64,000 nucleotides of DNA. It comes from an uncultured Acidimicrobiales bacterium (GTDB lineage Bacteria; Actinomycetota; Acidimicrobiia; Acidimicrobiales; Aldehydirespiratoraceae). Positions 15,241 through 39,065 of the stretch are shown here, piece by piece (position 1 is the stretch's first letter; every line of letters starts with the position of its first letter). Below the pieces are notes generated by a model. It had not been told where the DNA came from and ran no database searches. It saw only the letters and a list, made by a program, of their open reading frames with translations. A program made the position numbers and the translations under genes. The stretch is from assembly GCA_958296055.1 (NCBI GenBank), contig CATQHS010000001.1:62001-126000 (forward strand), given 5' to 3'.

Positions 15241-15308
15241 GGTGACGCGGGCCCGGGTCATGCTCCGGCGGCATTGTCCACTGTCGGCTGCATTGTTCAT
15301 GTCCTAAC

Positions 15309-16470: not shown

Positions 16471-16538
16471 TTCTCTCCTGTTCCATGCTATCAGCGGAGC
16501 CGCTGAATCAAGGGTGAGACGTTCTTCATCACCAGAAA

Positions 16539-16561
16539 CGGTTGGTTCAGCGGTCATCGGA
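16539..16561 (+). repeat. Left copy of 23-bp direct repeat flanking the GT39-like gene
   Basis: cggttggttcagcggtcatcgga; matches 18602-18624 with 2 mismatches. Confidence 0.7.
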
Positions 16562-18587: not shown

Positions 18588-18601
18588 GAACATTTTTATC
18601 C

Positions 18602-18624
18602 CGATTGGATCAGCGGTCATCGGA
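18602..18624 (+). repeat. Right copy of 23-bp direct repeat flanking the GT39-like gene
   Basis: cgattggatcagcggtcatcgga. Confidence 0.7.
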
Positions 18625-18677
18625 TCCTCTCTTTCCAGAACCGCGGCTTTGAGACGGCCGACCGTTCAGCAACGCCG

Positions 18678-19225
18678 TCAGATGTCGAAAACACCGTCGG
18701 CCCCCAGACTGGCCCCGACCAGGATGGCCGCCGCTCCGGTGAGCGCCTGACCAGTCCGGATCACTCGGGGGCCGATCTGGCCACCCGGCGGCATCACCGC
18801 TACTGTCAACGCCAGAGCGGCCCGACCGCGACGCCGGTCCGCGCCGGCCCCAGATCGGCGCCGGCGCTCACGGCCAGCACTCCGAGGCCGGGCCCGAACA
18901 GGTGGGGTACGGCCACGGGTACGATCGCCGCCTTCCATCCCGGCAGCCCTGGCTCAGCCCGGGCCGGTCCGGTGACCGCGTCTCGGCCCCCTACCACGAT
19001 CAGAGCTACCCCGGCCCCGATCCGGGCGGTGGGCGCGCTGACTCCCAGAGACTCCAGCAGCGGCCCTGAGAGTCCTGCGATCGCCGACACCGCGGCCAGT
19101 ACCGCCAGCGCGCCGCCGGCCGCGCCGCAGAGCCTCCGGCGTCGGGACCGGGCCGGCCCGCCCGGCCAGACCCTCAGCGGGTTGACGGTCACGGCTGCGG
19201 CCACTGCCGCCATCAGAACGTTCAC
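18678..19225 (-). pseudogene. MarC-like membrane protein, copy A, frameshifted
   Basis: Two overlapping ORFs together align with 25121..25678; frame lost after ADLGPARTGVAVG and resumed at ALALTVAVM...GADGVFDI. Confidence 0.75.
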
Positions 19226-19236
19226 GGCCCCCGAAT

Positions 19237-20196
19237 CTAGTTGTCAGTTCGCGTGAGGTTGTTAGCGCGTGATGCGGGCGGGCCGCCGGCTGCGGTGTGG
19301 TGTCGGTGGCAGTTGTAGTCGCAGTTCCAGCGTTTGAGGCGGATGCGGCGGTCGGTTTCGGATCGGAGGCGCCGGTTGTAGAGGAACTCGTCGGCGATGG
19401 TGCGGTTGAAGCGTTCGGCTTTGCCGTCAGTCGGGGCCGGTAGGGGCGGGTGCGCAGATGGGTGATGCGGCGTTGGGCGAGTTGTTCGGCGAAGAGCCCG
19501 GAGCAGAAGTTGGCCCCGTTGTCGGTCATCACCGCGTCCACGGCCATGTCGTTGGCCCAGAACCAGTCCTGGGCTCTGGTCCAGAACCCGGCCAGGGCAG
19601 CGGCGGTCTCGTCGTCGAGGGCTTCGACGTAGGCGACCCTGGAGTAGTCGTCGACGGCTACGTGCAGGTAGGTGTACCCGCCGCGGCGGGGGCCGCGGCG
19701 GGAGCGGCGGGCCTGGGGGCTTTGGCGGCCGTGTGCCCTCCAGCCGCCCCCGGGCGGGATCTTCGCCACTTTTTTGATGTCGAGGCGCCAGCTCCCCCGG
19801 CGCCGACCTCTCATAGCGGCGGATCACCCGCCCGGTCGGGCGGTCGATGACGTCGAGCCGGTTCAGCCCGTGGCGGCGAAGGACCCGCCACACCGTCGAG
19901 GCCGCCACGCCGGTGCGCGCCGACAGATACGCCGGGCCCCGCTTGGTGCTGCGCCGCAGCCGGCAGATCCGCTCCTCGGTCTTCGCGTCGGTGCGCCGAG
20001 GAGACCGGCGCGGCCGCGAGCTGCGGTCCGCCAGCCCGCAATCGCCGTGCTCCTGCCAGCGCCGCCACCACTTCGCGACCGTGCCCCGCGACAGGCCCAT
20101 CTGGCGGGCCACTTCGGCCTGGGGCTCCCCCGCAGCCACCCGCTGGACCAGCAGCAGCCGCCCCGCGGGAGTCAAACGTGCATTAGCGTGCGACAT
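19237..20196 (-). pseudogene. IS481-family transposase with two frameshifts
   Basis: HTH (RVAAGEPQAEVARQMGLSRGTVAKWWRRW) in frame 1, DDE core (YTYLHVAVDDYSRVAYVE...MTDNGANFCSG) in frame 2, C-term (TDGKAERFNRTIADEFLY) back in frame 1. Confidence 0.87.
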
Positions 20197-20288
20197 CGAG
20201 CCTCCTGTGCTCGTGGGTTGGTACACCACCACACTCGCACAGGAGGCTCACCCCATCACGCTGCTACCAACCTCTATGCCCAGAACAA
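19241..20288 (-). mobile_element. IS481-like insertion sequence, about 1048 bp
   Basis: Imperfect terminal inverted repeats (ttgtcagttcgcgtgaggttgttagc-gcgtgatg vs rc of right end ttgttctgggcatagaggttggtagcagcgtgatg); direct CTAG repeats at 19237-19240 and 20289-20292. Confidence 0.85.
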
Positions 20289-20291
20289 CTA

Positions 20292-20690
20292 GTGGACCTT
20301 GATCTTCATTGGTATTGACAAGAGTTAATACGGCGACGGTCTCATTCATGGCAAGACGGAGCGCGTAGTTGCTGACGATCGGACCTTTTCCGTCATAAAT
20401 TAGCCAGACCTGTTCCACTCGTTCTTGATAATCGGAGGAATGGAAGCGTGTCAAAGCACGGAATGGAATCCCTACCACTGGTAATAATTGTATGAAACCA
20501 CTCAAAGAGAAGCGCTTTGGGGCCAGCGGAGACAGGACCAGGAAAAGACCTACAATAAGTAAACTATTGGCAAATCTAACGTTTAATATCCAGTCCGTTG
20601 CCCAATGAAATAGAAGTAAAAACTATTCCGAAGGGTCGATGTAGATGGGGTCTGAACAAGATAAATAATGCTGATATTTCTACATAAATA
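20292..20690 (-). pseudogene. Remnant of an AT-rich membrane protein gene
   Basis: Frame reading ...NSLLIVGLFLVLSPLAPKRFSLSGFIQLLPVVGIPFRALTRFHSSDYQERVEQVWLIYDGKGPIV...; cut by IS on one side and by the hppA fragment on the other. Confidence 0.4.
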
Positions 20691-20691
20691 A

Positions 20692-20803
20692 TGGCCATAT
20701 CCACCAAAGCCTCGCTGCGGGAGATGATGCTGCCGGGGGCCCTGGCCGTGGTGGTGCCGCTGGTGATCGGCTTCGTCGACGTCGACTCCCTGGGCGGTTC
20801 CTG
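20692..20803 (+). pseudogene. Duplicated 3' fragment of hppA
   Basis: tggccatatccaccaaagcctcgctgcgggagatgatgctgccg...ctccctgggcgg matches hppA from 13366; then jumps to the sequence at the hppA stop (tgatcgcaactag). Confidence 0.93.
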
Positions 20804-20847
20804 TGATCGCAACTAGGGGGCGCGGGCGGCGGCCCGTCTGACCACAA

Positions 20848-21606
20848 CTAGAGGGCGCGGACGGCGGCCAGCCAGTCGAGGATGGTGCGGACCAACTCGT
20901 CGGAGTGGCGGCGGTCGGTGAAGAGGTGGTCGGCCCCGGCGACGGTGCGCAAATCGGCTGAGCCGGCCGCGGCCAGGGCCTCGGTCTGATCGGAGCCAAC
21001 CACGGTGTCAGCGCCGGCCTGCACCACCAGCAGGGGCCGGCCCAGGTCGGCCGCGGCGGCGGCCACGTCATGGCGGTGAAGGTCGTCGAGGAAGTCCCGG
21101 CCCACCGTCACCGGCCGGGCGCCGATGGTCACCTCCCCCCGGCCGTCCTCGCGTATGCGCCGCAGGGCGTCGGCGTCGAAGAGGTGCTCGACGTGGGCGG
21201 CCGAGGCCGGCGAGGCCACCGCCGCCACCGCGGCCACCGTGTGCAGGCGGGACGCGGCCAGCACCGCGGCGGCCCCGCCCAGGCTGTGGCCGATCAGCGC
21301 GCAGGGTCCGGCCCCCCGCTCGATGAGCGCCACCGCGGCCCGGGTGACGTCGCTCACGTTGGTGGTGACGGTGGTGTCGGCCAACTCGCCGCCGCTGGAG
21401 CCCAGGCCGGTGAAGTCGAAGGCCAGGGTCAGGTAGCCCCCGGCGGCCAGGCCCCGGGCCATGCGGGTGGTGGTGAACAGGTCCTTGGAGCAGGTGAAGC
21501 AGTGGACCAGCAGCGCCGCGCCGACAGGGGCGACGCTGGGGTGATGCAGCGCGCCCGCCAGCCTGGCCCCCGCTCCCCCCGTGAACTCGATCGACTCGAC
21601 GCTCAT
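20848..21606 (-). CDS. Alpha/beta hydrolase, intact copy B
   Basis: 252 aa; oxyanion region HCFTCSKD, nucleophile elbow GHSLGG, C-term GADHLF. Confidence 0.88.
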   Translation of the reverse strand: MSVESIEFTGGAGARLAGALHHPSVAPVGAALLVHCFTCSKDLFTTTRMARGLAAGGYLTLAFDFTGLGSSGGELADTTVTTNVSDVTRAAVALIERGAGPCALIGHSLGGAAAVLAASRLHTVAAVAAVASPASAAHVEHLFDADALRRIREDGRGEVTIGARPVTVGRDFLDDLHRHDVAAAAADLGRPLLVVQAGADTVVGSDQTEALAAAGSADLRTVAGADHLFTDRRHSDELVRTILDWLAAVRAL

Positions 21607-21704
21607 GAATCTAATAAGAGCACTAGCTGCGTCAAATCGTATTGTAGTAATAAAACCCCACCTCCGTATAAATAACGGGTCTTCACTGTTTTCAAAAGCA
21701 TCAT

Positions 21705-22847
21705 TTAGAAGGTTCTTCGTTTATCAAGGACTTTTTGGATAAGTTCTATGTAGCTATCAATAAAGAAATCTGGAGAGAATATTTCCTCTACTAATCTACG
21801 GCCAGTCAAACCCATTGCTCGTCTAGTTTCGTGTGGTTTTCTAGCGAACTGTACAATTTTATCGGCCATATCTTGGGCTGATGGAGCATCGAACAACAGA
21901 CCGTTTCTTCCTTCTTTGACTAGTCTAGAATTGTCTCCGGTCCGGCTGGCTAGTACCGGGACGCCGCACGCCATCGCTTCGCATATGGTGTTTGATGTGC
22001 CTTCATAGAGGGAGGGTAAACATACGACATCAGCCCTGTGGTAGAGTTGTTCAATGTTCTTAACCGCCCGGTGTAGACGAAAAACGTCCTTCAACATCCG
22101 ACGCTCAATGGCCTCCTTCAGTCGGGCATAATAATCCTCATTCTGCCACCAAGGATCCCCATACCAATCCACCAGCACATCCAGTTGCGGCTGCTCTCGC
22201 CGAACAATCTCCACCGCCTCCACCAAGGTGAAGGGGTTCTTTTGTGGATGCACTCGAGCTAGGACTAGCATTCGCAGCTCTCTCGACCGGATCGGCGGCG
22301 ACTGGACTGGGGAGAATCGTTTTAGATCCACCCCGTTGACGATAATATGAGTCCGGTCGGCAAGGCGCGGAAATGTTTCGAGTATGTGGCGGTGCTGGGA
22401 ATAGGAGTTGCATACCACCGCGTCAGCGAGAAAGTGAAGACCGTAGCGCACGAAACGCTTCCTACCGACGGCATCCAAACATCGCTCTGAGGTAATGAGA
22501 GCGAATCTTCGGCGAGGCAGTCCGGCCAACTCCATCAACGAGTTCGGCCCAGTCAGATAGGAAACGACTACGTCTGGGCTGCTCGCCTTGATAGCCTTGC
22601 GCATGGCGCGGACAAGATGCGCCTTGTTTCGGAATGGCACAGAATTGAGAGATACTCCAATCTCGGTGAGATCATCGGCAAAAAAACCACCCCCGTGATA
22701 GATGAACGTCTCTACGTCGTAGCTGCGGTCCTTTAGAGCAGCAGCCAGCATCACCAGTTGTCTCTGCGCCCCCCCTGACTCCATCTTGTCTATGACGAAA
22801 GCGACTCGGGGCAAAGTGGGGTCTGATACCCGGGCCGTGTTGCTCAT
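21705..22847 (-). CDS. Glycosyltransferase family 4-like protein
   Basis: VAFVIDKMESGGAQRQLVMLA; IIVNGVDLKRF; PSLYEGTSNTICEAMACGVPVLAS. Confidence 0.9.
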   Translation of the reverse strand: MSNTARVSDPTLPRVAFVIDKMESGGAQRQLVMLAAALKDRSYDVETFIYHGGGFFADDLTEIGVSLNSVPFRNKAHLVRAMRKAIKASSPDVVVSYLTGPNSLMELAGLPRRRFALITSERCLDAVGRKRFVRYGLHFLADAVVCNSYSQHRHILETFPRLADRTHIIVNGVDLKRFSPVQSPPIRSRELRMLVLARVHPQKNPFTLVEAVEIVRREQPQLDVLVDWYGDPWWQNEDYYARLKEAIERRMLKDVFRLHRAVKNIEQLYHRADVVCLPSLYEGTSNTICEAMACGVPVLASRTGDNSRLVKEGRNGLLFDAPSAQDMADKIVQFARKPHETRRAMGLTGRRLVEEIFSPDFFIDSYIELIQKVLDKRRTF

Positions 22848-22859
22848 GTTTAGAGCCGC

Positions 22860-24869
22860 TCAACTGTTTCCAGCAACTTCACAGAACGGGAGTTCACCTT
22901 CGTTGAAGTCGTTGTCGACATACTGCAACGAATCTGGAATGCATCCGGTCAGCGAGTTGCCGCTCAGCCGGATCAGTTCCAAGTCGTCCAAGCCGGCCAA
23001 TGTTTCGGGCACCGATCCAGTCAGCATATTGTTGCCGAGCCGCAACTCTCTCAACTTCGTCAGATTGGCGATCTCAGACGGTATCGGCCCTGTCAACCGG
23101 TTGTTTTGCAAGTTCAGCTTTATCAGCTCGTCTAAGTTGCCCAATTTCGGTGAGATATTTCCTTCGATACTGCGGGACGGAAGTTCTAGTTCTCGGATTC
23201 GGTTGGGGTCGCCTCCGATAGTCACATGGTCCCAGTTTACGAGCGACTCGTCATAGGTCCAGTTCACACCTGCCCCTTCGGTCAGAGCATCCTTGGCCGC
23301 CATCAAGCTCTCGCAATCGCGGACCAAACCGAGACTGTGTTCGGGGCTCGGCACAACTATGCCATTGGAGCAGGACGTATCATACGGTTCCGGCGCTATG
23401 CCTACCTGGAAGATCGGCGCTTCTTTCCCGCTTGACTTGTACCCTTCGGTGAACTCAAAGACAGCATCGGCCTTCACCGTCGCATAGTGGCCTGCCTCCG
23501 GGTAGATATTCTGGATGTTCTCTCGGTTCCAAGCGTTCCAGAGTTCGGCAAGGCGGGCCGCCGTTTCGATGTCGCTGCCGATCAGGTCGTCGGTCTCTCC
23601 GGGGTCTTGCGCCAGATTGAAGAGTTGTGGCCCTCTCTCTGAGTCTTCTTTGATGAGTTTCGCGTTGTCGGCGCGGACCACGAACTTAGTCGAACTCGGG
23701 GTGCGAGACGACTGTCGCCAGAATAGCGCTTCATGCGGTGCTCCAACCTTCTCTCCGCGAACGAAGGGATCAAGGTTCACACCGTCCAGTGGCCGGTCGA
23801 GGTTGGGTGCCGATCCGGCCAGGGCCAAAGCGGTGGCTGCTATGTCTAGGCTGGAGACCATCGGTTCGAATGTCGCACCACTCGGCCATTCGGCTGGCCA
23901 CGAGGCGATGAAAGGCACGCGTATTCCACCCTCGAAGAAGCTCCCCTTGCCTGTGCGGAAAGGAGCATTGTCAGCCCAGTCGTGACCCGGGTAGACGACA
24001 GGAGACACTCCACCGTTGTCGCTCAGAAAAAAGACGACGGTGTCGTCCCGGACGCCCGACCGTTCGAGTGCGTCGAGCACCCGGCCCACGTTGCCGTCCA
24101 GCGAGTCGACCATCGCTAAGTAGAGCCGGCGATTCTCGTCTTCTATGTGCGAATACTTCTCGACAAGATCTTCAGGAGCTTGCAAAGGGGTATGGGGCGC
24201 GTTATAGGCGAGGTACAGGAAGAACGGATCCTCTCGCCGCTCTTGCACAAAGCTCACCGCCCGGTCGGTCAGAGCGTCGGTTAGATAGCCGTCCATTCCG
24301 GTGGCGCCTCTGTTCTCATTCAACGGCAAGTAGTCAATTCCCGGACGAGTGAGATCAATGTGGAAGTAGTCGTGTGCGCCGCCGATAAAGCCGTAAAAGT
24401 AGTCGAATCCACGATTGAGGGGATGGAAGGCTGGGGCGGCCCCTAGTTGCCACTTGCCAACGATGCCGGTCTGGTAACCTGCCTCGCTCAGATAAGCCGC
24501 CATGGTCTTTTCCTCCACCGGAAGGCCGTGTCCTTCGTCGAGAGGCGCATAAGCGACGTTGTACTCCATACCGAAACGAGCTGGATAGCGGCCGGTCATC
24601 AAACCGGCGCGTGACGGGCCGCAGAAGGGATGCACGACATAACCGTTGGAGAAAGCCACGCCCTCTTCGGCCAACCGGTCGATGTTTGGGGTCTCAATCT
24701 CGGTCGCACCGTTGTAGCTGACGTCGTTGTAACCGAGATCATCAACGAAAATGACGACGAAATTCGGCCGATTATCCTCAGAAGATCTAGCGGCCTTTCG
24801 ATCAGGCAGTAGTGAGCACCCTGAGGCGATCAAAAAAACGATCAGAAGGCAAATGCGGGCGCTCTTCAT
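22860..24869 (-). CDS. Lipoprotein sulfatase with C-terminal plant-type leucine-rich repeats
   Basis: Lipobox LIASGC; sulfatase signature CGPSR (CxPxR) and GKWQLG; C-term LxxLxLxxNxLTGxIP repeats (KLNLQNNRLTGPIPSEIANLTKLRELRLGNNMLTGSVPETLAGL). Confidence 0.92.
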   Translation of the reverse strand: MKSARICLLIVFLIASGCSLLPDRKAARSSEDNRPNFVVIFVDDLGYNDVSYNGATEIETPNIDRLAEEGVAFSNGYVVHPFCGPSRAGLMTGRYPARFGMEYNVAYAPLDEGHGLPVEEKTMAAYLSEAGYQTGIVGKWQLGAAPAFHPLNRGFDYFYGFIGGAHDYFHIDLTRPGIDYLPLNENRGATGMDGYLTDALTDRAVSFVQERREDPFFLYLAYNAPHTPLQAPEDLVEKYSHIEDENRRLYLAMVDSLDGNVGRVLDALERSGVRDDTVVFFLSDNGGVSPVVYPGHDWADNAPFRTGKGSFFEGGIRVPFIASWPAEWPSGATFEPMVSSLDIAATALALAGSAPNLDRPLDGVNLDPFVRGEKVGAPHEALFWRQSSRTPSSTKFVVRADNAKLIKEDSERGPQLFNLAQDPGETDDLIGSDIETAARLAELWNAWNRENIQNIYPEAGHYATVKADAVFEFTEGYKSSGKEAPIFQVGIAPEPYDTSCSNGIVVPSPEHSLGLVRDCESLMAAKDALTEGAGVNWTYDESLVNWDHVTIGGDPNRIRELELPSRSIEGNISPKLGNLDELIKLNLQNNRLTGPIPSEIANLTKLRELRLGNNMLTGSVPETLAGLDDLELIRLSGNSLTGCIPDSLQYVDNDFNEGELPFCEVAGNS

Positions 24870-25090
24870 CTTCGCAGCAGTGAACTTTCCAGTTTCGGCA
24901 GTTGCATGGCAGGCCGATGCGCGGGCAGGAGCAGTCTGGGATCGGCGGGATCGGCGTTGCGGCAAACTTCCCGTTGCGGCGAACTTCGAAGTGCAGGTGA
25001 GGACCAGTGTTCCATCTCGTTGAGCCTACTAGTCCGATGACCTCGCCCCGAGTGACGTAGTCTCCGGCTTCCACCGTCAGCTTCGACGAA
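24805..25090 (-). pseudogene. M23 (LytM-type) peptidase, C-terminal remnant
   Basis: SSKLTVEAGDYVTRGEVIGLVGSTRWNTGPHLHFEVRRNGKFAATP; HLHFE motif present, upstream half absent. Confidence 0.65.
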
Positions 25091-27465: not shown

Positions 27466-28472
27466 CCGGTTTCCGGCTGCGCCCGCAACCCGGCGGGACC
27501 GGGGCCGGTCACGGTTTCCGGCTGCGCTCGCGACCCGCCGGGGTCGTAGACGAGCCGTACCTGCGCCGGCTGGGGCTGATCCGGGTTTTGGTGGCCGGCT
27601 ATGCCACGGCGTGGACCGCCGTCCGGGCCCCTCACCTGCTCGACCACCTCGACTTCGACGGCCGCCGCTTCGATCCGGTCGGGGTCTTGGCCCCCCTGAG
27701 CGGCCCGCCCGCCGGGATCGCCGTGGTAGCCGGGGTGGCGGCCACCGTCGCCTTCGGGGCGGCGGCGACGCTGGGCTGGCGCTACCGGGTCACCGGTCCG
27801 GCGCTGGCCGTGTCGTTCCTGGCCGTCACCACCTACCGCAGCTCATGGGGCCAGATCTTCCACACCGAGAACCTGGCCGCCCTCCATCTCGCCGTCCTAG
27901 CCGTCGCCCCCGCCGACCGCCACTGGGCCCTGCGACGGGCCCTGCTACCCCGCCACCCCCGGCGATCAGAGCCCGAGCGGTCTGCGGTTCGGAGCGGCGA
28001 CGACGGGCGCTGGGCGGTGCGGGCCCTGGCCGTCGCCACCGTGGCCGGCTACGTGGTGGCCGGGGTGGCCAAGCTGCGCAACGGCGGCGCGGCCTGGCTC
28101 GACGGCGAGGTGCTGGTGAACCAGGTGGCCTTCGACAACGCCCGCAAAGACGTGCTCGGCGACGTGATGAGCCCTCTGGCCGGCTTCTTCGTGGAGCACC
28201 GGTGGCTGGCCCGCCCGGCCGTGCTGGCCTCCATGGCCGTGGAACTCGGCGCGCCGCTGGCGCTGCTGGGCCGCCGGGCCGCCGGGGTTTGGAGCTTGGC
28301 TGCCTGGGGCTTCCACCTGGCCATCCTGGTCCTGATGGCCATCGTGTTCCCCTACCACCTGCTGGGCCTGGCCCTAGTCCCCCTACTCCCCCTCGAGGAC
28401 TGGACTTCCCGCCTCCGGCCGATAGGCCCTGTGTCGGCTGGCCGGAGCCCGTTCGGCGATCCAGTCGGCTAG
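27462..28472 (+). CDS. HTTM (gamma-carboxylase-like) domain membrane protein
   Basis: Multi-TM; TYRSSWGQIFHTENLAALHLAVLA, VAGVAKLRNGGAAWLDGEVL, GAPLALLGRR..., WGFHLAILVLMAIVFPYHLLGLAL. Confidence 0.75.
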   Translation: MTGFRLRPQPGGTGAGHGFRLRSRPAGVVDEPYLRRLGLIRVLVAGYATAWTAVRAPHLLDHLDFDGRRFDPVGVLAPLSGPPAGIAVVAGVAATVAFGAAATLGWRYRVTGPALAVSFLAVTTYRSSWGQIFHTENLAALHLAVLAVAPADRHWALRRALLPRHPRRSEPERSAVRSGDDGRWAVRALAVATVAGYVVAGVAKLRNGGAAWLDGEVLVNQVAFDNARKDVLGDVMSPLAGFFVEHRWLARPAVLASMAVELGAPLALLGRRAAGVWSLAAWGFHLAILVLMAIVFPYHLLGLALVPLLPLEDWTSRLRPIGPVSAGRSPFGDPVG

Positions 28473-29687
28473 GCCGTCGAGTTGGCGGGCCACCGAGTCG
28501 GGCGGGCCGGTCAGGTCGAGGGGCCGGCAGTGCAGGACTTGGCCCGAGTTGCGGACGGTGACCGGCTGGCCGGGTGAGCCGTCCTCGGCGTGGCAATAGA
28601 TGAGGACCCCCTCGCCGAGGCTGAGGGCGGTGGTGTAGGCCAGCATCTGGTAGTAGTCGGGGTTGCGGGCCTCCCCCGACTCGGTGAGCTTGTACTTGAC
28701 ATCGCCGACGTAGACGGTCTCGCCGCGCCGCTCGAACACCAGGTCGGGCCGCATCCGCACCGTGTCTCCCCGGCCCAGGTGGGTCGGGTACTGGTCCTTC
28801 ACCTTCAGACGACCCCGCAGCGCCCGCCGGAGCCGCTCAGTGACGAACCGCTCGAACAGGTCGTTCATGTCCACCATGAACGACACAGTCGTCCACCGGC
28901 CCGACCTATCGACCAGGGTCAGGTTCTCCAGCACCAGCCGGGCCAGGTGCAGGGCGGGCCGGTAGTGCTCGTTGAGCCGGTTGAAGTCGATCCGGTCGAG
29001 GTCGCCGGGCTCGACCCGGGCGTTGGCCACCTCTTCCAGGTCGGCGACCAAGCCGAGAAGCCGGCGCCGGTCCTCGGCTGGCACCATCGGCACCCGCAGG
29101 GCCAAGCGCAGCGCCGCCTTCAGGTAGCGGTTCTCCCTGACGTCGGCGGTGAAGTCGTCGTAGCGGCAGTCGAGCGGGAACGCCAGCCCGCCCCGGGCGA
29201 CCATGGGCGCCAGGTCGGGACGGCCCCGCAGGGCGGTCAGCCGCTCGCGGCGCTCTCGGTACCGGCGGAAGACGCCCCGGGCCAGGGTGGTCTCGGCGGT
29301 GCGGGCCAGGAACGAGATCACCGCGGGCAGCAGGTCCGGGTCGCCGGCGTAGTCGAAGGCCTCGGTGCGCCAGTCTTCGGGCCGCAGCCCCGCCTCCAGC
29401 AGCAGGAACAGGTTTTCGAGGCGGATCTTGGGCTTGACCAGGATGCGGACGTCGCCGACGATCAGCGTTCCCACCCGGTGGCCGGCCCTCACGTTCCAAC
29501 ATCGGGGAACCTGGCTCGGGGAGACCGACACCAACCGGGTGGCGGCCAAGTCGCGAGCTTGAGCGTCGGCGATCGGCAGATCCCGCTCCTCGTACTCGAA
29601 CAGCTCGTGGGTACTCATCCGGCCTGGGTCGGCGCCGCGCCCGTCGCTGGCGGCGCGGCCCTCGAGCACTCCGGCCGCGATGCTCAT
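28383..29687 (-). CDS. mcrC: McrC-family restriction component
   Basis: ATG at 29687 overlaps upstream stop (ATGA); ENRYLKAALR, MNDLFERFV, RPDLVFERRGETVYVGDVKYK (PD-(D/E)xK-like D...VKYK), PDYYQMLAYTTAL. Confidence 0.88.
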   Translation of the reverse strand: MSIAAGVLEGRAASDGRGADPGRMSTHELFEYEERDLPIADAQARDLAATRLVSVSPSQVPRCWNVRAGHRVGTLIVGDVRILVKPKIRLENLFLLLEAGLRPEDWRTEAFDYAGDPDLLPAVISFLARTAETTLARGVFRRYRERRERLTALRGRPDLAPMVARGGLAFPLDCRYDDFTADVRENRYLKAALRLALRVPMVPAEDRRRLLGLVADLEEVANARVEPGDLDRIDFNRLNEHYRPALHLARLVLENLTLVDRSGRWTTVSFMVDMNDLFERFVTERLRRALRGRLKVKDQYPTHLGRGDTVRMRPDLVFERRGETVYVGDVKYKLTESGEARNPDYYQMLAYTTALSLGEGVLIYCHAEDGSPGQPVTVRNSGQVLHCRPLDLTGPPDSVARQLDGLADWIAERAPASRHRAYRPEAGSPVLEGE

Positions 29688-31942
29688 GCGGTCGGCGGTT
29701 CGGGGCCGGTCTCGTCGGGCCCGTCCGGCTCCGATCCGGTCGGGTCCACGCTGGGATCGCCGGTCCGCTCCCGGTAGCGGCCCAGAACGGCATCGAAGCG
29801 GAACCGGTCGATCTGGGCCGGGTCGCCGAAGAACTGGTCCTCGATGAAGGGCTCGATGTTGTACTCCCAGATCTGGCGCAGCCGGTCGCGGTCGAGGCCC
29901 GGCTTCATGAAGTGGCTGGCACCGAGCAGCAGATGCGACCCGCCCAGCGCATGGGTGAGGTCGTCGTTGACCATGTCCACCAGGACGCCGACCCACTCCG
30001 GCTCGTTGTTGGCCCTCAGCCAGCGTTCGAGCAGCCCGCTGGCCGGGCCCCGGTCGGGGAAGAACGGCACGAACTGGAAGCGGCGGCGGAGGGCGGCGTC
30101 GATGAGGGCGATGGACCGGTCGGCGGTGTTCATGGTGCCGACGAACTGGAGGTTTGGGGGCAGACGGAAGGGTTGGTCGGGCCGGTAGAGGGTCCGCACC
30201 GACTCGTCCCGGTACTCGAATAAGAACAGCAGCTCGCCTAGCACCTTGGGCAGGTTGGCCCGGTTGATCTCGTCGATCACCATGACGTGGCGCCGGCCGG
30301 GATCGGCCGCGGCCTTCTCGGCCAGCAGCGCCAGCGGGCCGGGGGTGAGTCGATAGGCCAGGGCCCCGTCGGCGCCGGTCTCGGGCCGGTAGCCCTCGAA
30401 GAAGTCCTCATATGAGGTCGAGGGGTGGAACTGCACCAGCATCCGCCGATCCGGGTCGGGGGCCAGGGCTCGGGCCAGCCCCCGGGCCAGATAGGTCTTG
30501 CCGGTGCCCGGCGGGCCGTAGAGGATGGCCTGGCCCTTGTCGTCGAGCAGGCTCACCAGATCGTCGAGAAAGCCGCGGCCCTCCAGCAGCAACTCCTCGG
30601 CAAGGCTCTCGATCCTCGCGTCGAGGGAGCCCTCCGCGGCTTCGTCGTCTTCGGCCCCTTCAGCCTCGGCCTCTTCGTCTCCGGCGGCGACGGAACCCCG
30701 GTGCTCCGACCGCGATCCCTCGCCGGTTGCCGCCTGCATCACCCGATCCATCATGGGCCTTGCCGCCTCGGTGACCGATACCACCTCGGCCCGCAGATCC
30801 AGGCCGGCCAGTTCCTCGGGCTCGTACCACCTGCCGTAGAAGAGGTCGCCGTTGGCCCCCACGAACCCGTGCTTGTCGCTGTTCGGTGACTTGAAGTCTG
30901 ACAGGCGCATGACTTTGAACTCTTCGAACCCGGGCGGCCGCAACGCCTCGAGGGAGCCCTTCAGATCGGTCCAGGGGCTCAAGTGACCGGTGCGAAAACC
31001 GATAGCTGCGCCTTGGTGGTTGACCCAGACTCGGATGGCAGGGCCTTCGGGCTCCACCGGCAGCCGCCAGTCCACCCACAGGTCCGAGCGCCCCGGCCCG
31101 TTCTGATTCCACATTCGCGGGAGCTTCTTGTACTTCAGGTCCAGACCGGCTACCTCCGTGACCGACTCGCGTAGCGATTCGCCCAAATGCCGGGAGACGG
31201 CAACTAGAGCGTTGGCGTTGGCGAGAAGGGCGGCAGGGTCGATGTCTCGGTCGAGGCCGAACCGACACCGGTCGACCAGCACGGGGTCAAAGAGGGCATG
31301 ATTGTGCTGGACATGCATGTTGCGGACATACCAGAACCGCTCTGTGTCGTCGTCGAAGGCTCGGATCGCCTCCAAAAGCCGGAGATAGCGATCAGCCGGT
31401 TGAGAGGACGGCGGGAGGGTTGTGCCGGTGCAGTATTCGACGAAATAAACGGAGTCGCGCCAGGCGATGGGCCATTCAAGGGGATTCTCCATATTCCAGA
31501 AGTAAGACGCCAGGAACGCGGAGTAGCCAGGGGCAAGCAGTCTCCCCGCACCGATCCGCCGCACCTCGGCGGCCAGGTTGCTGATTTTACGGTGAGCCTC
31601 AGCGCTGTCGCGAGGCGGTCTCAACACATCGACCAGCAGACGGGCGGTGGCTCTGGAATCGTCGGTCTCGTTGTTGATATTACGCAGGAATATCTGTCCC
31701 GGGTAGCCCCTGAACGCAGTGTTTTTTCGTGAAAATTGCTGCATGGCTTCGACGAAGGCACCCAAGTCGTCGCTGCGGGCCAGTTCTTCGAGGTTGGCCA
31801 AGGCTATGGGAGCTTGGCGGCGCAAATACGGCAGCCAGTCGTCGGGGTCAGCGCCGCCGGCCGCCTCCCACTGCTTGACGTGAGCCCCGTACCAACGCTG
31901 GCTGAACTCGGCCAGTTCATTCTCGTATGCGTGCTCAGCCAT
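29684..31942 (-). CDS. McrB-family AAA+ ATPase, paralog 2
   Basis: GPPGTGKT, FHPSTSYEDFFEGYRPE, VMVIDEINRANLPKVLGELLFLFE, TMNTADRSIALIDAALRRRF. Confidence 0.9.
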   Translation of the reverse strand: MAEHAYENELAEFSQRWYGAHVKQWEAAGGADPDDWLPYLRRQAPIALANLEELARSDDLGAFVEAMQQFSRKNTAFRGYPGQIFLRNINNETDDSRATARLLVDVLRPPRDSAEAHRKISNLAAEVRRIGAGRLLAPGYSAFLASYFWNMENPLEWPIAWRDSVYFVEYCTGTTLPPSSQPADRYLRLLEAIRAFDDDTERFWYVRNMHVQHNHALFDPVLVDRCRFGLDRDIDPAALLANANALVAVSRHLGESLRESVTEVAGLDLKYKKLPRMWNQNGPGRSDLWVDWRLPVEPEGPAIRVWVNHQGAAIGFRTGHLSPWTDLKGSLEALRPPGFEEFKVMRLSDFKSPNSDKHGFVGANGDLFYGRWYEPEELAGLDLRAEVVSVTEAARPMMDRVMQAATGEGSRSEHRGSVAAGDEEAEAEGAEDDEAAEGSLDARIESLAEELLLEGRGFLDDLVSLLDDKGQAILYGPPGTGKTYLARGLARALAPDPDRRMLVQFHPSTSYEDFFEGYRPETGADGALAYRLTPGPLALLAEKAAADPGRRHVMVIDEINRANLPKVLGELLFLFEYRDESVRTLYRPDQPFRLPPNLQFVGTMNTADRSIALIDAALRRRFQFVPFFPDRGPASGLLERWLRANNEPEWVGVLVDMVNDDLTHALGGSHLLLGASHFMKPGLDRDRLRQIWEYNIEPFIEDQFFGDPAQIDRFRFDAVLGRYRERTGDPSVDPTGSEPDGPDETGPEPPTA

Positions 31943-34256
31943 GTTCCTCTCCACTGAAGAGCGGGTTTCCGTTCTGCTCTTCGTAGCGGTCAAGAACCGC
32001 CTCGAAGCGGAACCGCTTTATCTGAGCCCCATCGCCGAAGAACTGGTCCTCGATGAAGGGCTGGATGTTGTAGGTCCAGATCTTCCTCAGCCGCTCCCGG
32101 TCGAGGCCCGGCTTCATGAAGTGGCTGGCCCCGAGCAACAGATGCGACCCACCTAGCGTCTCGGCCAAGTCCCGGTTGACCATGTTGACCAGAACGCCGA
32201 CCCCTTCCGGCTCGTCGTTGGCCGTCAGCCAGCGTTCGAGCAGCCCGCCGGCGGGTCCGTCGTCGGGGAAGAACGGCACGAAATGGAAGCGGCGGCGGAG
32301 GGCGGCGTCGATGAGGGCGATGGACCGGTCGGCGGTGTTCATGGTGCCGATGAACCGGAGGTTCGAGGGCAGCTCGAAGGGCTCGTCGGACCGGTAGAGC
32401 GTCAGCACCGACTCGTCCCGGTACTCGAGGAGGAACAGCAGCTCGCCCAGCACTCTGGGCAGGTTGGCCCGGTTGATCTCGTCGATCACCATGACATGGC
32501 GCCGGGTGGGATCGGCCGCGGCCTTCTCGGCCAGCCGGGCCAGCGGACCGGGGACGAGCCGGTAGGCCATAGCCCCGTCGGGGCCGGTCTCGGGCCGGTA
32601 GCCCTCGAAGAAGTCCTCATATGAGGTCGAGGGGTGGAACTGCACCAGCATCCGCCGGCCCGGGTCCGGGGCCAGGGCTTCGGCCAGCTTGCGGGCCAGA
32701 TGGGTCTTGCCGGTGCCGGGCGGGCCGTAGAAGACCACCTGGCCCTTGTCGTCGAGCAGTTCCACGATGTCGTCGAGAAAGCCGCGGTCCTCCAGCAGCA
32801 ACTCCTCAGCCAGGTCCTCCAGCAGCAGCTCCTCGGCCAGGTCCTCGATCCTCGCGTCGAGGGAGGTCTCCGCGGCTTCGTCGTCTTCGGCTCCTTCAGC
32901 TTCGGCTCCTTCAGCCTCGGCCTCTTCGTCTCCGGCGGCGACGGAACCCTGGTGCCCCGGCCGGACCGATCCCTCGCCGGTTGCCGCCTGCATCACCCGA
33001 TCCATCATGGGCTTCGCCGCCTCGGTGACTGATACCACCTCGGCTCGCAGATCCATGCCGGCCAGTTCCTCGGTCTCATACCGTTTGCCGTAGAAGAGGT
33101 CGCCGTTGACCCCCACGAACCCGTGCTCGCCGCCGTTCGCTGGCCCGAAGTCGAAGTCCGACAGGCGCATGACTTTGAACTCTTCGAACTCGGGCGGCCG
33201 CAACGCCTCGAGGGAGGTCTTCAGATCGGTCCAGGGGCTCAAGTGACCAGTGCGCAGACCGATGGCTACGCCTTGATGGCTGACCCAGACTCGTATGGCT
33301 GGGCCCCCGGGCTCCACCGGCAGTCGCCAGTCCACCTGCAGGTCTGAGCGCCCCTTTCCGCTCCACATTCGCGGGAGCTTCTCGTACTTCAGGTCTAGGC
33401 CGGATGCCTCTGCGGCCGAATCGCGCAGCGCCTGGCCCAAGTGCCAAGAGACGTCGACCAAGACGTCGGCGTTAGCAAGGAGAGCGGCGGGGTCAATGTC
33501 TCGGTCGAGGCCGAACCGGCACCGGTCGATCAGTGCCGAGTCGAGGAAGGCTGGCTTGGTTTCGTCCCACCAGACCGCAACCCGCTCGAACCGCTCTATA
33601 TCGCCGTCGAATTCTCGGATCGCCTGCAAGTAGCGCTGATACCGGCTGGCCGGATCCGAGGTGGGCGGCAGTTTCTCGCCGGTGCAGTGTTCGATGAGCT
33701 TCAGGGCGCTCGGCCAGGCGACGGGCCAGCTTGCCCGGGCCTGCAGCGCCCAGAAGTAAGAGGCCAGGAATGCGGAGGAGCCGGGCTTGGGGTAGCTCCC
33801 CGAGCCGATCCGCCTCACCTCGGCGGCCAGGTCGCTCATCTTGCGGCGGGCGTCGGCGTGGTCACGGGGCGGGCGCAGCGCCTCGACCAGCAATCGGGCG
33901 GTGGCCTCGGGATCATCGGCTGTCTTGCCTATCTGATTCAGGAACATCTGCCCGTTAAAGCCGTTGAAGGAGAGGGTGTCGCGGTGCCGGGCCCAGACGA
34001 CCATGGCCTGGATGAAGGCGCCGAGGTCTCCGCTGCGGGCCAGTCCGTCGAGGTGGGCGAGGGCAATGGGGGCGCTGCGGAGGAACCTGACCTGCCGCTC
34101 GCGACCTTCGACTCCGACCGTCGAGAGCTTCTCGGCCGGCAGGGAAGACGCGGCGGCAGCGTCCCCTTCGCCCGCCGCCTCGAATCGCTCGATGTGGGCC
34201 TGGTACCAGCGCCGCCGGAACCCGGTCAGCTCGTCCTCGTGTGAATGTTCTGCCAT
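31935..34256 (-). CDS. McrB-family AAA+ ATPase, paralog 1
   Basis: Same motifs as paralog 2 (GPPGTGKT, INRANLPRVLGELLFLLE, MNTADRSIALIDAALRRRF), diverged N-terminal region. Confidence 0.9.
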   Translation of the reverse strand: MAEHSHEDELTGFRRRWYQAHIERFEAAGEGDAAAASSLPAEKLSTVGVEGRERQVRFLRSAPIALAHLDGLARSGDLGAFIQAMVVWARHRDTLSFNGFNGQMFLNQIGKTADDPEATARLLVEALRPPRDHADARRKMSDLAAEVRRIGSGSYPKPGSSAFLASYFWALQARASWPVAWPSALKLIEHCTGEKLPPTSDPASRYQRYLQAIREFDGDIERFERVAVWWDETKPAFLDSALIDRCRFGLDRDIDPAALLANADVLVDVSWHLGQALRDSAAEASGLDLKYEKLPRMWSGKGRSDLQVDWRLPVEPGGPAIRVWVSHQGVAIGLRTGHLSPWTDLKTSLEALRPPEFEEFKVMRLSDFDFGPANGGEHGFVGVNGDLFYGKRYETEELAGMDLRAEVVSVTEAAKPMMDRVMQAATGEGSVRPGHQGSVAAGDEEAEAEGAEAEGAEDDEAAETSLDARIEDLAEELLLEDLAEELLLEDRGFLDDIVELLDDKGQVVFYGPPGTGKTHLARKLAEALAPDPGRRMLVQFHPSTSYEDFFEGYRPETGPDGAMAYRLVPGPLARLAEKAAADPTRRHVMVIDEINRANLPRVLGELLFLLEYRDESVLTLYRSDEPFELPSNLRFIGTMNTADRSIALIDAALRRRFHFVPFFPDDGPAGGLLERWLTANDEPEGVGVLVNMVNRDLAETLGGSHLLLGASHFMKPGLDRERLRKIWTYNIQPFIEDQFFGDGAQIKRFRFEAVLDRYEEQNGNPLFSGEEHG

Positions 34257-34409: not shown

Positions 34410-35756
34410 ATGGCCGAACAACCTTCTAGAATTGTAGTGACGGGCGCGTCAGGTTATTTGGGACAGCACTTAATCGAGCTTCTGGCCAATAAAGGATATC
34501 AGGTCGTCGCGCTTGTGCGCGAACCAGAAAAACTTTTAAAAAAGGGAGTGGAAGCCAGTTACTATGACCTGAAGAGTTCAGCCAAACTGCCTGCAGAGGT
34601 TTTCAGTAATGCCGCCGCTGTAGTCCACGCTGCCGTAAACATAAATGACTCACCGCTATCGGAACAGATGGAGATTGAGGCGGCGCAAAGGCTGGTCGAA
34701 CAAGCCAGTCGAGCTGGTGTCGGGCGGTTGGTATTCATCTCAAGCTATGTGGCTAATCCCGATGGGCTGAGTCGCTATGCTCGGGTGAAATGGGCGATTG
34801 AACAGGTGTTCAAGAACGTCGGGGGCACGGTCGTGCGACCGGGGGTGGTTTACGGTGATAGCGCCGGTGCCAACCGGGGCCTGTTCGCCTTGCTTGACAG
34901 GTGGGCTAAGTCTGCCCCCTTCCTTCCGGGCTTTGTACCACCGCTGTGGGTGCGGACCATACATATCCATGACCTGTGCGATGTCATACTGAATAGCATC
35001 GAAGAAACAGACAATCTAATCCCTATGTACGAGGCGGCAGCTCAGGATATTCGCCTGACGACATTTCTGCGTCGACTCGCCTGGCACAGGCATCGTCGGT
35101 ATCCTACGGTAATCCCTTTTCCCGTTTTGTTGGTCAGCTTTGCCGCCGCGGTGGGTCGTGCTGTGCCGTTTGTCTCGGCCTACTACGTCGAACGGCTGAC
35201 GGGAATGCGGGCACTGCGCCATCGATCATCCGGCGAAACGCGCTCGTGCGCAGGCGTAACTCTGCGCCCGCTGGCGGACGGCATGTCCCCTTCGCCAAGA
35301 CGCCGATTGTTAGAAGAAGGACGAGCGTTAGGCCGCTATCTCAACGGCCAATTCCCGGGCTACTTGATCTTGAGCCGATACGTTCGGGCGGTGGAACGGA
35401 CAGCGTCACAAACCCAAATACATAGCCTGGAACTCGCACCCTTCTACCTCAAATGGCCAATAGCGTTGCGTCTTATTGATCCCAAATCTCCGCTGTGCCG
35501 TTTGGCACCGGACCTACGAGATGAAATAGCCCATCGCATCCAATTCATGGCGGCCTTATCCGAATCCAACCCCCGCACGGCACCGATGTACCATGCCCGC
35601 AAGCCCGCTCTTCTACCGTTCGTGGTCTTAGATCTGTCGCTTCGCATCTTCGCTGACGTCTTCTTGCGCGGGTTAGGAGCGATTGTACGTCTAGGCTGTC
35701 GGTTATCGAAGATGACGAGCAGCAAAGACACTAAACATGCAACCATCAACCTTTGA
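34410..35756 (+). CDS. NAD-dependent epimerase/dehydratase (extended SDR)
   Basis: IVVTGASGYLGQHLIELLANKG; VFISSYVANPDGLSRYARVKWAIE; VVRPGVVYG. Confidence 0.9.
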   Translation: MAEQPSRIVVTGASGYLGQHLIELLANKGYQVVALVREPEKLLKKGVEASYYDLKSSAKLPAEVFSNAAAVVHAAVNINDSPLSEQMEIEAAQRLVEQASRAGVGRLVFISSYVANPDGLSRYARVKWAIEQVFKNVGGTVVRPGVVYGDSAGANRGLFALLDRWAKSAPFLPGFVPPLWVRTIHIHDLCDVILNSIEETDNLIPMYEAAAQDIRLTTFLRRLAWHRHRRYPTVIPFPVLLVSFAAAVGRAVPFVSAYYVERLTGMRALRHRSSGETRSCAGVTLRPLADGMSPSPRRRLLEEGRALGRYLNGQFPGYLILSRYVRAVERTASQTQIHSLELAPFYLKWPIALRLIDPKSPLCRLAPDLRDEIAHRIQFMAALSESNPRTAPMYHARKPALLPFVVLDLSLRIFADVFLRGLGAIVRLGCRLSKMTSSKDTKHATINL

Positions 35757-37353
35757 ACCACAGGTAGTTATCATCGGAAGCGGTCCTGCCGGAGTATCCG
35801 CAGCCTTCCCATTGGTGGAAAAAGGTTTCCGCGTATTGATGCTCAATGCGGGCCGAGAGACTCCAGACCTCTCTGGGCTCGAAGAACAGGATACATTGCG
35901 TCGGCTTCGTGAGAGTTCAAGATTCTGGAAGATCATGGTTGGTGAGCAGTATGAGCGATTCGAGAAGGTTGACGGCGCGTCACCTAGGTACCAGGTTCCC
36001 TCGTATCGACGAGCCTTTGCCGAGTTCAAACAACGTTATGCAATCAGCACTGATAACTTCGCCGTATATGGATCGTTGGCGCGGGGCGGATTATCTAACG
36101 TATGGGGCACTGGCGTGAGCAGGTTTGACGATGAGGACTTAGCAGAATTTCCCATCTCGCTCAACGATCTTCGCCGTTCTTATCAGTGCGTGGTGCAGCG
36201 GATTGGCGTGAGTGGTGCCAACGATGATGATCTGTCTGCTTTTCATGGACACGAGGAGTCATTGCAGCCGCCCCTAACTCCAACCGGAAACGCTCGACTG
36301 CTTTATAGGCGTTATCGTACTCGCTCTAGGCTAGCGCACAGACACGGTATTTTTATAGGACATAACAGAATGGCAACGTTGTCCCGTAATCACCAAGGTC
36401 GCCAAGGGTGTGTAACCTGCGGTCTCTGCACCTACGGCTGCGCGAGTATGTCTATGTGGTCAGCAAAATATGATTTGGTAAAGCTTTTACAGTTTCCTAA
36501 TTTTAGTTATCAAGGTAACGCATTTGTCTCATATATGCGCCGCTTAGAGACAAGCTATATGATAGGTGTCTACTCCGATCAACGCCGCGTCATCGAAGAG
36601 GTCAAAACGAAGCAGGTGATTTTGGCAAGCGGTACTATCGGTAGCGCTAAACTTGTTATGGATACGCTTAAAATATACGATGAAAACAGAACATTGCTGA
36701 CCAATCCGATGGCCGCTTTCGCATTATCGGTGCCGCGTTGGCGGATCGGCAACTTGATCGATGAGGATGTGCTAGGCTCGTCGCAATTGTCATATTGTGT
36801 GGCGACGCCGGAATCAATCGAGCGCTACGCTTCAGGGTATATATTTCTTGCCGATACAATTTCTACGACTGAATTTCTTACTTACGTGCCGTTTGCTTAT
36901 CCGCTTTCGCGACGAATTGCTCGTCGACTGCAGCCCATCTTACTGATTGGAACCTGTTTATTAGGCAGCAGCTATGGTCGCAGTACGATGCGCCTGAGTT
37001 CATCCGGCGATGTGGAAATTCGCGGCGGTTATGCATCAACGGCAGAATCGGCTTTAAAGACGGCAATAAACCGTTTGGCGGGTGTCTTGATGCGCTTTGG
37101 CGTCTATTTAATACCCGGCAGCATAAACCTGAGCGAAATTGGTGAGGATGTCCATTACGCTGGTACGGTGCCAATGCGGGCTGAGCCCCGTATAGGCGAA
37201 GCTAATCCACAGGGAGAAGTGCAGGGTCTTCCGGGTGTCTATGTGGTGGATGGCTCAGCCTTGACCGCTTTGCCATCCAAACTGCATACACTGACGATAA
37301 TGGCCAATGCCGATCGGATCGCAACCGCCATAGCCGCGGCACAACCATGCTGA
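35737..37353 (+). CDS. GMC-family oxidoreductase, copy 1
   Basis: VVIIGSGPAGVSAAFPLVEKG; CVTCGLCTYGCA Cys motif; C-term GLPGVYVVDGSALTALPS. Confidence 0.9.
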   Translation: MQPSTFEPQVVIIGSGPAGVSAAFPLVEKGFRVLMLNAGRETPDLSGLEEQDTLRRLRESSRFWKIMVGEQYERFEKVDGASPRYQVPSYRRAFAEFKQRYAISTDNFAVYGSLARGGLSNVWGTGVSRFDDEDLAEFPISLNDLRRSYQCVVQRIGVSGANDDDLSAFHGHEESLQPPLTPTGNARLLYRRYRTRSRLAHRHGIFIGHNRMATLSRNHQGRQGCVTCGLCTYGCASMSMWSAKYDLVKLLQFPNFSYQGNAFVSYMRRLETSYMIGVYSDQRRVIEEVKTKQVILASGTIGSAKLVMDTLKIYDENRTLLTNPMAAFALSVPRWRIGNLIDEDVLGSSQLSYCVATPESIERYASGYIFLADTISTTEFLTYVPFAYPLSRRIARRLQPILLIGTCLLGSSYGRSTMRLSSSGDVEIRGGYASTAESALKTAINRLAGVLMRFGVYLIPGSINLSEIGEDVHYAGTVPMRAEPRIGEANPQGEVQGLPGVYVVDGSALTALPSKLHTLTIMANADRIATAIAAAQPC

Positions 37354-37445: not shown

Positions 37446-39065
37446 ATGCAACCATCAACCTTTGAGCCACAGGTCGTCATCATCGGAAGCGGTCCTGCCG
37501 GAGTGTCCGCGGCGTTTCCATTGGTAGAGAAAGGCATCCGCGTGTTAATGCTCAATGCTGGCCACGAGACTCTTGGCCTCTCTGAGCTTGACAAATACGA
37601 CACATTACATCGACTCCGCAATAGTTCAGAATTCTCGAAGATCGTGGTCGGCGAGCAGTATGAGCGATTCGAGAAGGTTGACGGCATATCGCCTAAGTTT
37701 CAGGTTCCATGGTATCGTCGAGATCTTGCTGAATTCCACCGACGTTATGCAATCCGTACCGACAACTTCACTGTGATGGGATCGTTGGCGCGCGGCGGAT
37801 TGTCTAATGCATGGGCCACTAACGTGTGTCGGTTCGACGATGATGACCTAGCAGACTTTCCCATTTCGCTCAACGATCTTCGCCGTTCTTACCAGAACGT
37901 GACGCAGCGGATTGGCGTAAGTGGCACTAACGAAGATGATCTATCTGACTTTCACGGATACGAGGAGTCATTGCAGCCACCTTTAGCCTCAAGCGGACAT
38001 GCTCGGCTGCTTTATGAACGCTATTGCAGTCGATCAGAGTCAGCGCGCAGACGCGGTGTCTTTGTAGGACATACTCGGATGGCGACGTTGACCCGTAATC
38101 ACCAAGGTCGCCACGGGTGTGTGTACTGCGGGCTCTGTGCATATGGCTGCGCGAGTGAGTCTATATGGTCAGCTAAATATGATGTAGACAAGCTCTTACG
38201 GTTCCCTAATTTTAACTATCGTGACGGCGCATTTGTCTCACATCTGCGCCGCTTAGATACCAACTATATGATAGGCATTAGCCCCGACCAGCACAGCGTC
38301 GTAGTGGAGGAGGTAAAGACGAAGCGGGTGATTTTGGCAAGTGGTGCTATTGGTAGTGCAAGACTTGTCCTAGATGCGCTTAAGATGCACAATGAGAGCA
38401 GGCCCTTATTGACCTCTCCGGGAGCAGCTTTCGCCTTATTAGTGCCGCGTTGGCGGATTGGTAACTTGATAGATGAAGATGTGTTAGGCACGGCACAATT
38501 GTCATATTGTGTGGCCACGCTGAACTCAGTTGAGCGCTATGCTTCCGGGTATATTACTATTGCTGATATAGTTAATACGGCGGAGTTTTTGGCTTATATG
38601 CCGTTTTCCTATCCACTTTCGCGACGAATTGCTCGTAGATTGCAGCCTATCCTGTTGCTTGGGATAATTTTCTTAGGCGGCGGTTATAGTTGTAACAAGA
38701 TACGGTTGAGTTTATCTGGCGATTTGGAAATTTCCGGTGGTTATATATCAACGACAGAATCAACTATTAAGACGGCGGTAAACCGTTTAGCAGGTACACT
38801 ATTGCGCTGTGGTGCCTACTTGATACCTGGCAGTACAACCCTGAGAAAGGTTGGTGAAGATGTTCACTATGCTGGCACGGTGCCGATGCGGGCTGCACCC
38901 CGTATAGGCGAAGCTAATTCACAGGGAGAAGTGCAAGGGCTTCCGGGTGTCTATGTAGTGGACGGCTCAGCCTTGACTGCCCTGCCATCCAAAGCACACA
39001 CACTGACGATAATGGCCAATGCCGATCGGATCGCAACCGCCATAGCCGCGGCACAGCCAGGCTGA
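37446..39065 (+). CDS. GMC-family oxidoreductase, tandem paralog copy 2
   Basis: Same N-term MQPSTFEPQVVIIGSGPAGVSAAF and C-term; CVYCGLCAYGCA. Confidence 0.9.
   Translation: MQPSTFEPQVVIIGSGPAGVSAAFPLVEKGIRVLMLNAGHETLGLSELDKYDTLHRLRNSSEFSKIVVGEQYERFEKVDGISPKFQVPWYRRDLAEFHRRYAIRTDNFTVMGSLARGGLSNAWATNVCRFDDDDLADFPISLNDLRRSYQNVTQRIGVSGTNEDDLSDFHGYEESLQPPLASSGHARLLYERYCSRSESARRRGVFVGHTRMATLTRNHQGRHGCVYCGLCAYGCASESIWSAKYDVDKLLRFPNFNYRDGAFVSHLRRLDTNYMIGISPDQHSVVVEEVKTKRVILASGAIGSARLVLDALKMHNESRPLLTSPGAAFALLVPRWRIGNLIDEDVLGTAQLSYCVATLNSVERYASGYITIADIVNTAEFLAYMPFSYPLSRRIARRLQPILLLGIIFLGGGYSCNKIRLSLSGDLEISGGYISTTESTIKTAVNRLAGTLLRCGAYLIPGSTTLRKVGEDVHYAGTVPMRAAPRIGEANSQGEVQGLPGVYVVDGSALTALPSKAHTLTIMANADRIATAIAAAQPG

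What the first reader, a model, noticed from the sequence alone, without database searches (positions are those of the whole stretch)
28383..34256. Three-gene McrB-McrB-McrC restriction locus with two tandem, diverged McrB ATPases
Two full-length McrB-like proteins (about 770 and 753 aa), both with intact Walker A/B and similar roughly 400-aa N-terminal regions, are coupled to one McrC by 8-bp and ATGA overlaps. Classical McrBC has one McrB. Two co-translated paralogs suggest a mixed hexamer or dual target recognition. The shared N-terminal region has no DNA-binding domain I can recognise.
Basis: partly seen in the sequence, partly recalled or inferred. Interest (0 to 1): 0.72.

Follow-up and report, generated by a model that had tools for sequence, protein, structure and literature searches.

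The report
McrBC restriction locus with duplicated McrB
This is an ordinary kind of bacterial anti-phage DNA-cutting system (McrBC) in which the motor/sensor gene has been copied in tandem in this one lineage, so two versions share a single nuclease and one version's far N-terminal region is drifting away from the family.

Summary
On the minus strand, two full-length McrB-like AAA+ proteins (A, 773 aa; B, 752 aa) are followed by one McrC, with an 8-bp and an ATGA overlap. Both McrBs keep Walker A/B, the McrB signature MNTADRS and the arginine fingers. McrC keeps PD...D-x-K. The genome has two McrBs and only one McrC.

The triplet is not a conserved system. About 105 relative loci, 36 relative-bearing genomes of 396 in the class and 40 hit genomes of 398 in the phylum showed no other tandem pair. 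A and B are sisters in every domain tree, so this is a lineage-specific tandem duplication.

Silent-site divergence is a mosaic: dS about 0.76 in residues 1-270, 0.17 in the middle (about 312-688), higher again at the C-end. Orthologous pairs do not show this. The core was probably homogenised by gene conversion. Copy B's first domain evolves faster and has lost a family-conserved WW motif.

The roughly 400-residue N-terminus matches no Pfam, PADLOC or PDB sequence; predicted (pLDDT 87-90) as a helical domain plus an alpha/beta domain weakly resembling DUF1054. Dual target recognition is possible but unproven.

Known kind, modest variant, moderate-low interest.

The parts
31935..34256 (-). McrB-A, upstream McrB-like AAA+ GTPase-type subunit, 773 aa; keeps the family-typical N1 domain
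29684..31942 (-). McrB-B, downstream paralog, 752 aa; accelerated N1 domain with the conserved WW changed to MH (residues 209-210)
28383..29687 (-). McrC nuclease subunit, 434 aa, PF10117, PD...D-x-K intact; the only McrC in the genome
31935..31942 (-). 8-bp overlap of the A stop and B start; Shine-Dalgarno of B lies in the last codons of A
   Evidence: sequence
29684..29687 (-). ATGA overlap of the B stop and McrC start
   Evidence: sequence
33447..34256 (-). N1 region of A (residues 1-270), predicted all-helical, no known domain; dS to B about 0.76
32979..33491 (-). N2 region of A (residues 256-426), predicted alpha/beta, weak fold match to YktB/DUF1054 (2a8e); placing the match on N2 is inferred from the secondary structure
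32193..33323 (-). homogenised core of A (residues about 312-688: most of N2, linker and AAA+ domain); four-fold sites 12% different from B against 39% outside

Best explanation
This is a McrBC-type (Type IV-like) restriction operon in which mcrB was duplicated in tandem in this lineage. Shown: both McrB copies and the single McrC are intact and overlap; A and B are sisters in each domain; the core (most of N2, linker and motor) is almost identical at silent sites while N1 and the C-terminal end are not; B's N1 is accelerated. Inferred: gene conversion between the tandem copies keeps the motor and second N-terminal domain alike. Because the motors are 85% identical and encoded by overlapping genes, A and B assemble into mixed McrB hexamers on the shared McrC dimer, which cuts DNA recognised through the N-terminal regions. 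Copy A keeps the family-typical N1 and copy B's N1 is changing its contribution to sensing. The targets (modified or sequence-specific DNA) are unknown.
For: Domains and motifs. Overlaps and the Shine-Dalgarno of B. Only one PF10117 and two McrB matches in the genome. A+B sister: N1 100/100, N2 100/100, AAA 98/92. dS mosaic: N1 0.76, core 0.17, C-end 0.53; Fisher p=4e-14 (N1 vs core) and 1.6e-4 (C-end vs core); two-breakpoint model 0 of 200 permutations. Eleven control pairs of relatives show no such mosaic (N1/AAA dS ratio about 0.8-2 against 4.5), and the A-B excess of N2 over N1 identity (0.25) exceeds all 561 other pairs (maximum 0.196). Purifying selection: nonsynonymous below synonymous in N1 (p=3e-7), core (p=0.001), AAA (p=0.02), all gaps in frame. 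Relative rate, N1 residues 61-270: A keeps the majority residue at 20 sites, B at 5 (p=0.004); AAA 9 against 7. Both N-termini keep a confident predicted fold (pLDDT 87.3 and 89.8).
Against: Mixed rings are inferred from similarity and gene overlap only; no complex was modelled. N1 of B could instead have been imported from an unsampled relative. With a single genome carrying the pair, the retained state could be transient. Omega of about 0.5 in the core is relaxed compared with 0.23 in the neighbouring GMC pair.
Confidence: 0.5

Rival explanations
1. Dual target recognition: A and B recognise different DNA targets and each, or both together, direct the shared McrC, widening the restriction range.
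For: B's N1 is accelerated and lost family-conserved residues (R14S, W70F, M84I, N87R, P136L, W209M, W210H) while the motor did not diverge asymmetrically. Intragenomic McrB paralogs with divergent N-termini are known (PMC2614495).
Against: The second N-terminal domain, normally as variable as N1 or more so among relatives, is nearly the same in A and B. Which domain contacts DNA is unknown. Losing conserved residues fits loss of function as well as new specificity.
Confidence: 0.2
2. B is a modulator: a McrB with an impaired N1 that joins rings and tunes activity, as the short McrBs form does in E. coli.
For: B lost the WW motif kept in 33/34 and 30/34 relatives but keeps all motor motifs. 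E. coli McrBs is a titled precedent (reference in PMC6344862).
Against: N1 of the pair remains under purifying selection and B keeps the fold. A modulator would not need a 400-residue N-terminus.
Confidence: 0.15
3. Redundant or dosage duplication without a new function, one of several duplications in a duplication-prone island, likely to be lost.
For: No other genome has the triplet. The adjacent GMC oxidoreductase genes are also a tandem pair (dS 0.63) and other duplicated pairs lie in the same 14-39 kb stretch. Two direct repeats can recombine to one.
Against: N1 silent divergence of about 0.76 suggests the copies have been kept for long, both with intact frames and constraint.
Confidence: 0.15

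Closest known systems
McrBC (E. coli K-12 type, Type IV restriction)
   Same: AAA+ McrB with Walker A/B and MNxxDRS signature, directly followed by McrC with PD-(D/E)xK; operon arrangement
   Different: Two full-length McrB genes; N-terminal region without a Pfam match to DUF3578, and E. coli McrB's N-domain not among the listed fold matches
E. coli McrB / McrBs (long and short forms)
   Same: Two McrB forms sharing one McrC
   Different: [quoted passage not shown] here it is a separate full-length paralog
Intragenomic McrB paralogs diverged at the N-terminus (Fukuda et al. 2008, PMC2614495)
   Same: Conserved motor, divergent N-terminal part, proposed shift in recognition
   Different: Those pairs are described as two mcrBC homologs in one genome; here both McrBs lie in one operon with one McrC
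LlaJI / LlaI / BsuMI type McrBC-related restriction cassettes
   Same: McrB-like plus nuclease subunit, unique N-terminus in LlaJI; three-ORF cassettes exist (PMC1459862)
   Different: Those belong to restriction-modification systems; no methyltransferase among the neighbours scanned here
CoCoNuT systems (PMC11090510)
   Same: McrBC-family motor and McrC homolog
   Different: CoCoNuTs have NxD and long coiled coils; here NxxD and an intact McrC nuclease motif

Membership tests
McrBC restriction systems | McrB AAA+ motor with Walker A, Walker B and MNxxDRS signature | tested here: met
   GPPGTGKT, MVIDEINR, MNTADRS in both A and B; AAA_5 and NF008457 hits (NF008457 below its equivalog cut-off)
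McrBC restriction systems | McrC partner with PD-(D/E)xK nuclease | tested here: met
   PF10117 3e-51; P314, D315, D329, K331 conserved across 58 relatives
McrBC restriction systems | mcrB and mcrC adjacent and co-transcribed | tested here: met
   8-bp and ATGA overlaps; adjacency also in nearly all relatives. Co-transcription itself not tested
McrBC restriction systems | GTP-dependent, modified-DNA-dependent cleavage | not testable with these tools
   needs biochemistry
McrBC with a known recognition domain (DUF3578, YTH/EVE, B3) | N-terminal domain of one of these folds | tested here: not met
   no credible Pfam hit among 34 members; no PDB sequence relative; best folds are YktB/DUF1054 (2a8e, E 5e-3 and 7e-3, TMt 0.60 and 0.61), no E<=0.001; only the top 50 matches were seen
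CoCoNuT | NxD GTPase motif and long coiled coils | tested here: not met
   NTAD = NxxD; predicted N-terminus is helical plus alpha/beta
LlaJI-type restriction-modification | cognate methyltransferase in the cassette | tested here: not met
   flanking genes with matches are HTTM, NAD-epimerase, GMC oxidoreductases, sulfatase, glycosyltransferase, amidohydrolase; methyltransferases elsewhere in the genome not searched
Conserved McrB-McrB-McrC triplet system | same triplet in other genomes | tested here: not met
   none among about 105 loci, 396 class genomes, 398 phylum genomes or the plasmid records with two matches that were opened

The most novel reading that the evidence does not exclude
A McrBC machine that works as an obligate or facultative hetero-ring of two McrB paralogs on one McrC, with the motor and one sensing domain kept alike by gene conversion while a second, structurally new helical sensing domain diversifies, giving combinatorial recognition.
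Probability: 0.15. Interest if true: 0.6.

Novelty: new variant of a known kind. Interest (0 to 1): 0.33.

Why it matters
If the two McrBs share one McrC in mixed rings, the locus is a natural test of how a defence AAA+ ring tolerates unlike subunits and how recognition evolves after duplication while the motor is held constant. It also points to an unannotated N-terminal region (two predicted domains) spread through McrB proteins of Acidimicrobiia and other actinobacteria.

Tried and rejected
A conserved triplet was searched for in relatives, class, phylum, named genomes, plasmids and viral contigs and not found; the viral scan found no relative at all. Domain shuffling of B's N1 from a sampled relative was rejected because A and B are sisters for N1. 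Intrinsic slow silent evolution of the core was rejected with pairs of relatives. A dead copy was judged unlikely (intact motifs, constraint, in-frame gaps). The roughly 200-aa insert of the longer relatives is not a copy of N2 (hhalign), and nothing outside the AAA+ domain of the 9 relatives scanned has a Pfam match at E<=0.01. A direct profile comparison with MrcB_N (DUF3578) was planned, but the family search found nothing anywhere, controls included, so it is uninformative. DUF1054 relatives were absent from 150 actinobacterial genomes, so no profile comparison of N2 with DUF1054 was made.

Full report
What is there. The minus strand carries McrB-A (34256-31935), McrB-B (31942-29684) and McrC (29687-28383) as overlapping genes. 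The overlaps are 8 bp and ATGA. The last codons of A (SGEEHG, then stop) encode the Shine-Dalgarno and start codon of B. Pfam, NCBIfam and motif scans make A and B McrB-type AAA+ proteins and the third gene McrC. The own genome has two McrB matches and one McrC match, all here.

How common it is. McrB relatives are widespread in Acidimicrobiia and other actinobacteria: 61 of 101 related genomes have some match, many of these only weak AAA+ matches, and 80 named loci were retrieved. With only strong matches counted, no retrieved locus has two McrBs in tandem, and nearly all have one McrB beside one McrC (L061 is one McrB split over two frames). A class-wide search (36 of 396 genomes positive) and a phylum-wide search with the McrB family (40 of 398) showed two adjacent McrBs only in this genome. 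Four plasmid records with two matches were opened and had a single McrB at the matched locus, beside McrC in three of them. A viral scan found none. Limits: large collections were sampled, the first look of the search tool scores few candidates per genome, and unrelated McrB types in tandem were tested only through one family model.

Origin. Trees of N1 (residues 1-270), N2 (285-425) and AAA (488-690) each join A and B with strong support (100/100, 100/100, 98/92). So the pair arose by duplication in this lineage, not by bringing two old McrBs together. Silent-site divergence is not uniform: dS about 0.76 in N1, about 0.17 over residues 301-690, 0.53 at the C-terminal end. The best breakpoints are at residues 312 and 688 of A; four-fold sites differ by 12% inside and 39% outside, and no permutation of 200 matches. 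Eleven pairs of relatives show no such pattern, and there N2 usually diverges at least as much as N1. Over 561 pairs, no pair has as large an excess of N2 over N1 identity as A-B. The simplest reading is an older duplication whose core was later homogenised by gene conversion. The alternative, a young duplication with N1 and the C-end replaced from an unsampled close relative, is not excluded.

Divergence. Relative to the family majority, B's N1 changed more (A keeps 20, B keeps 5, p=0.004), including a WW pair (A 229-230, B 209-210) present in 33/34 and 30/34 relatives. The AAA domains show no asymmetry (9 against 7). The pair is under purifying selection.

The N-terminal region. No member of a 34-sequence alignment has a credible Pfam or PADLOC match and there is no PDB sequence relative. 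AlphaFold2 predicts both N-termini confidently (pLDDT 87.3 and 89.8): about 250 residues of helices, then an alpha/beta domain. Foldseek gives the same best hit for both, B. subtilis YktB (2a8e, DUF1054), E 5e-3 and 7e-3, TM-score 0.60 and 0.61 by target; no match passes E 0.001. That this match falls on the second domain is inferred from the secondary structure. The known McrB recognition folds named in PMC7680126 (DUF3578, YTH, B3) were not among the matches seen. So the recognition region is of unknown type, but it is shared by the wider family and not special to the triplet.

Mechanism. In characterised McrBC, two McrB hexamers bind an McrC dimer, and McrC stimulates GTP hydrolysis (PMC6624300, PMC7680126). 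With 85% identical motors made from overlapping genes and one McrC, mixed rings are the most likely outcome. That is inference. Whether B adds a second specificity, tunes activity, or is simply tolerated cannot be decided from sequence.

Comparison. A short McrBs form is described for E. coli as a modulator of McrBC (reference in PMC6344862). Paralogous McrBs with divergent N-termini within one genome were noted in 2008 (PMC2614495). The CoCoNuT census reports frequent multiple McrBC copies in the same islands (PMC11090510). A search of open-access papers for two-McrB operons found no such description in the passages read. The new elements here are the single-McrC tandem pair and the conversion mosaic, both modest.

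Verdict. Observation confirmed, interpretation partly supported, known kind with an unusual lineage-specific variant.

Noticed in passing
window 35737-37353 and 37446-39065 (+): A second tandem duplicate close to the operon: two GMC-type oxidoreductases, 75% identical, dS about 0.63, with a less diverged 3' end (dS 0.27).
   Followed up: partly
window about 14200-25000: Duplicated pieces: glycosyltransferase 14236-15300 and 21705-22847 (62% over 281 aa), sulfatase fragment 15309-15917 and sulfatase 22860-24965 (64% over 200 aa). With the McrB and GMC pairs this stretch looks duplication-prone.
   Followed up: no
window about 14000-40000: G+C falls to 0.50-0.67 over much of this stretch against about 0.70-0.75 on either side, consistent with a mosaic accessory island; the McrB genes (about 0.65-0.67) lie in it.
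   Followed up: no
window about 32790-32850 (-), residues 471-490 of McrB-A: A 9-residue in-frame tandem repeat (EDLAEELLL twice) in the linker before the AAA+ domain of A; B has one unit.
   Followed up: no
L042/L045, L075/L097: Relatives with nearly identical AAA+ domains (95-96%) but strongly diverged N2 (53-60%, dS 1.7-2.0), which suggests swapping of N2 between McrB genes of this family.
   Followed up: partly
L041, L042, L045, L051, L075 and others: Many relatives carry an extra stretch of about 210-240 residues between N2 and the AAA+ domain, with no Pfam match in those scanned; the window's copies lack it.
   Followed up: partly
window 22860-24965 (-): Sulfatase with a C-terminal leucine-rich-repeat stretch, an unusual fusion.
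   Followed up: no
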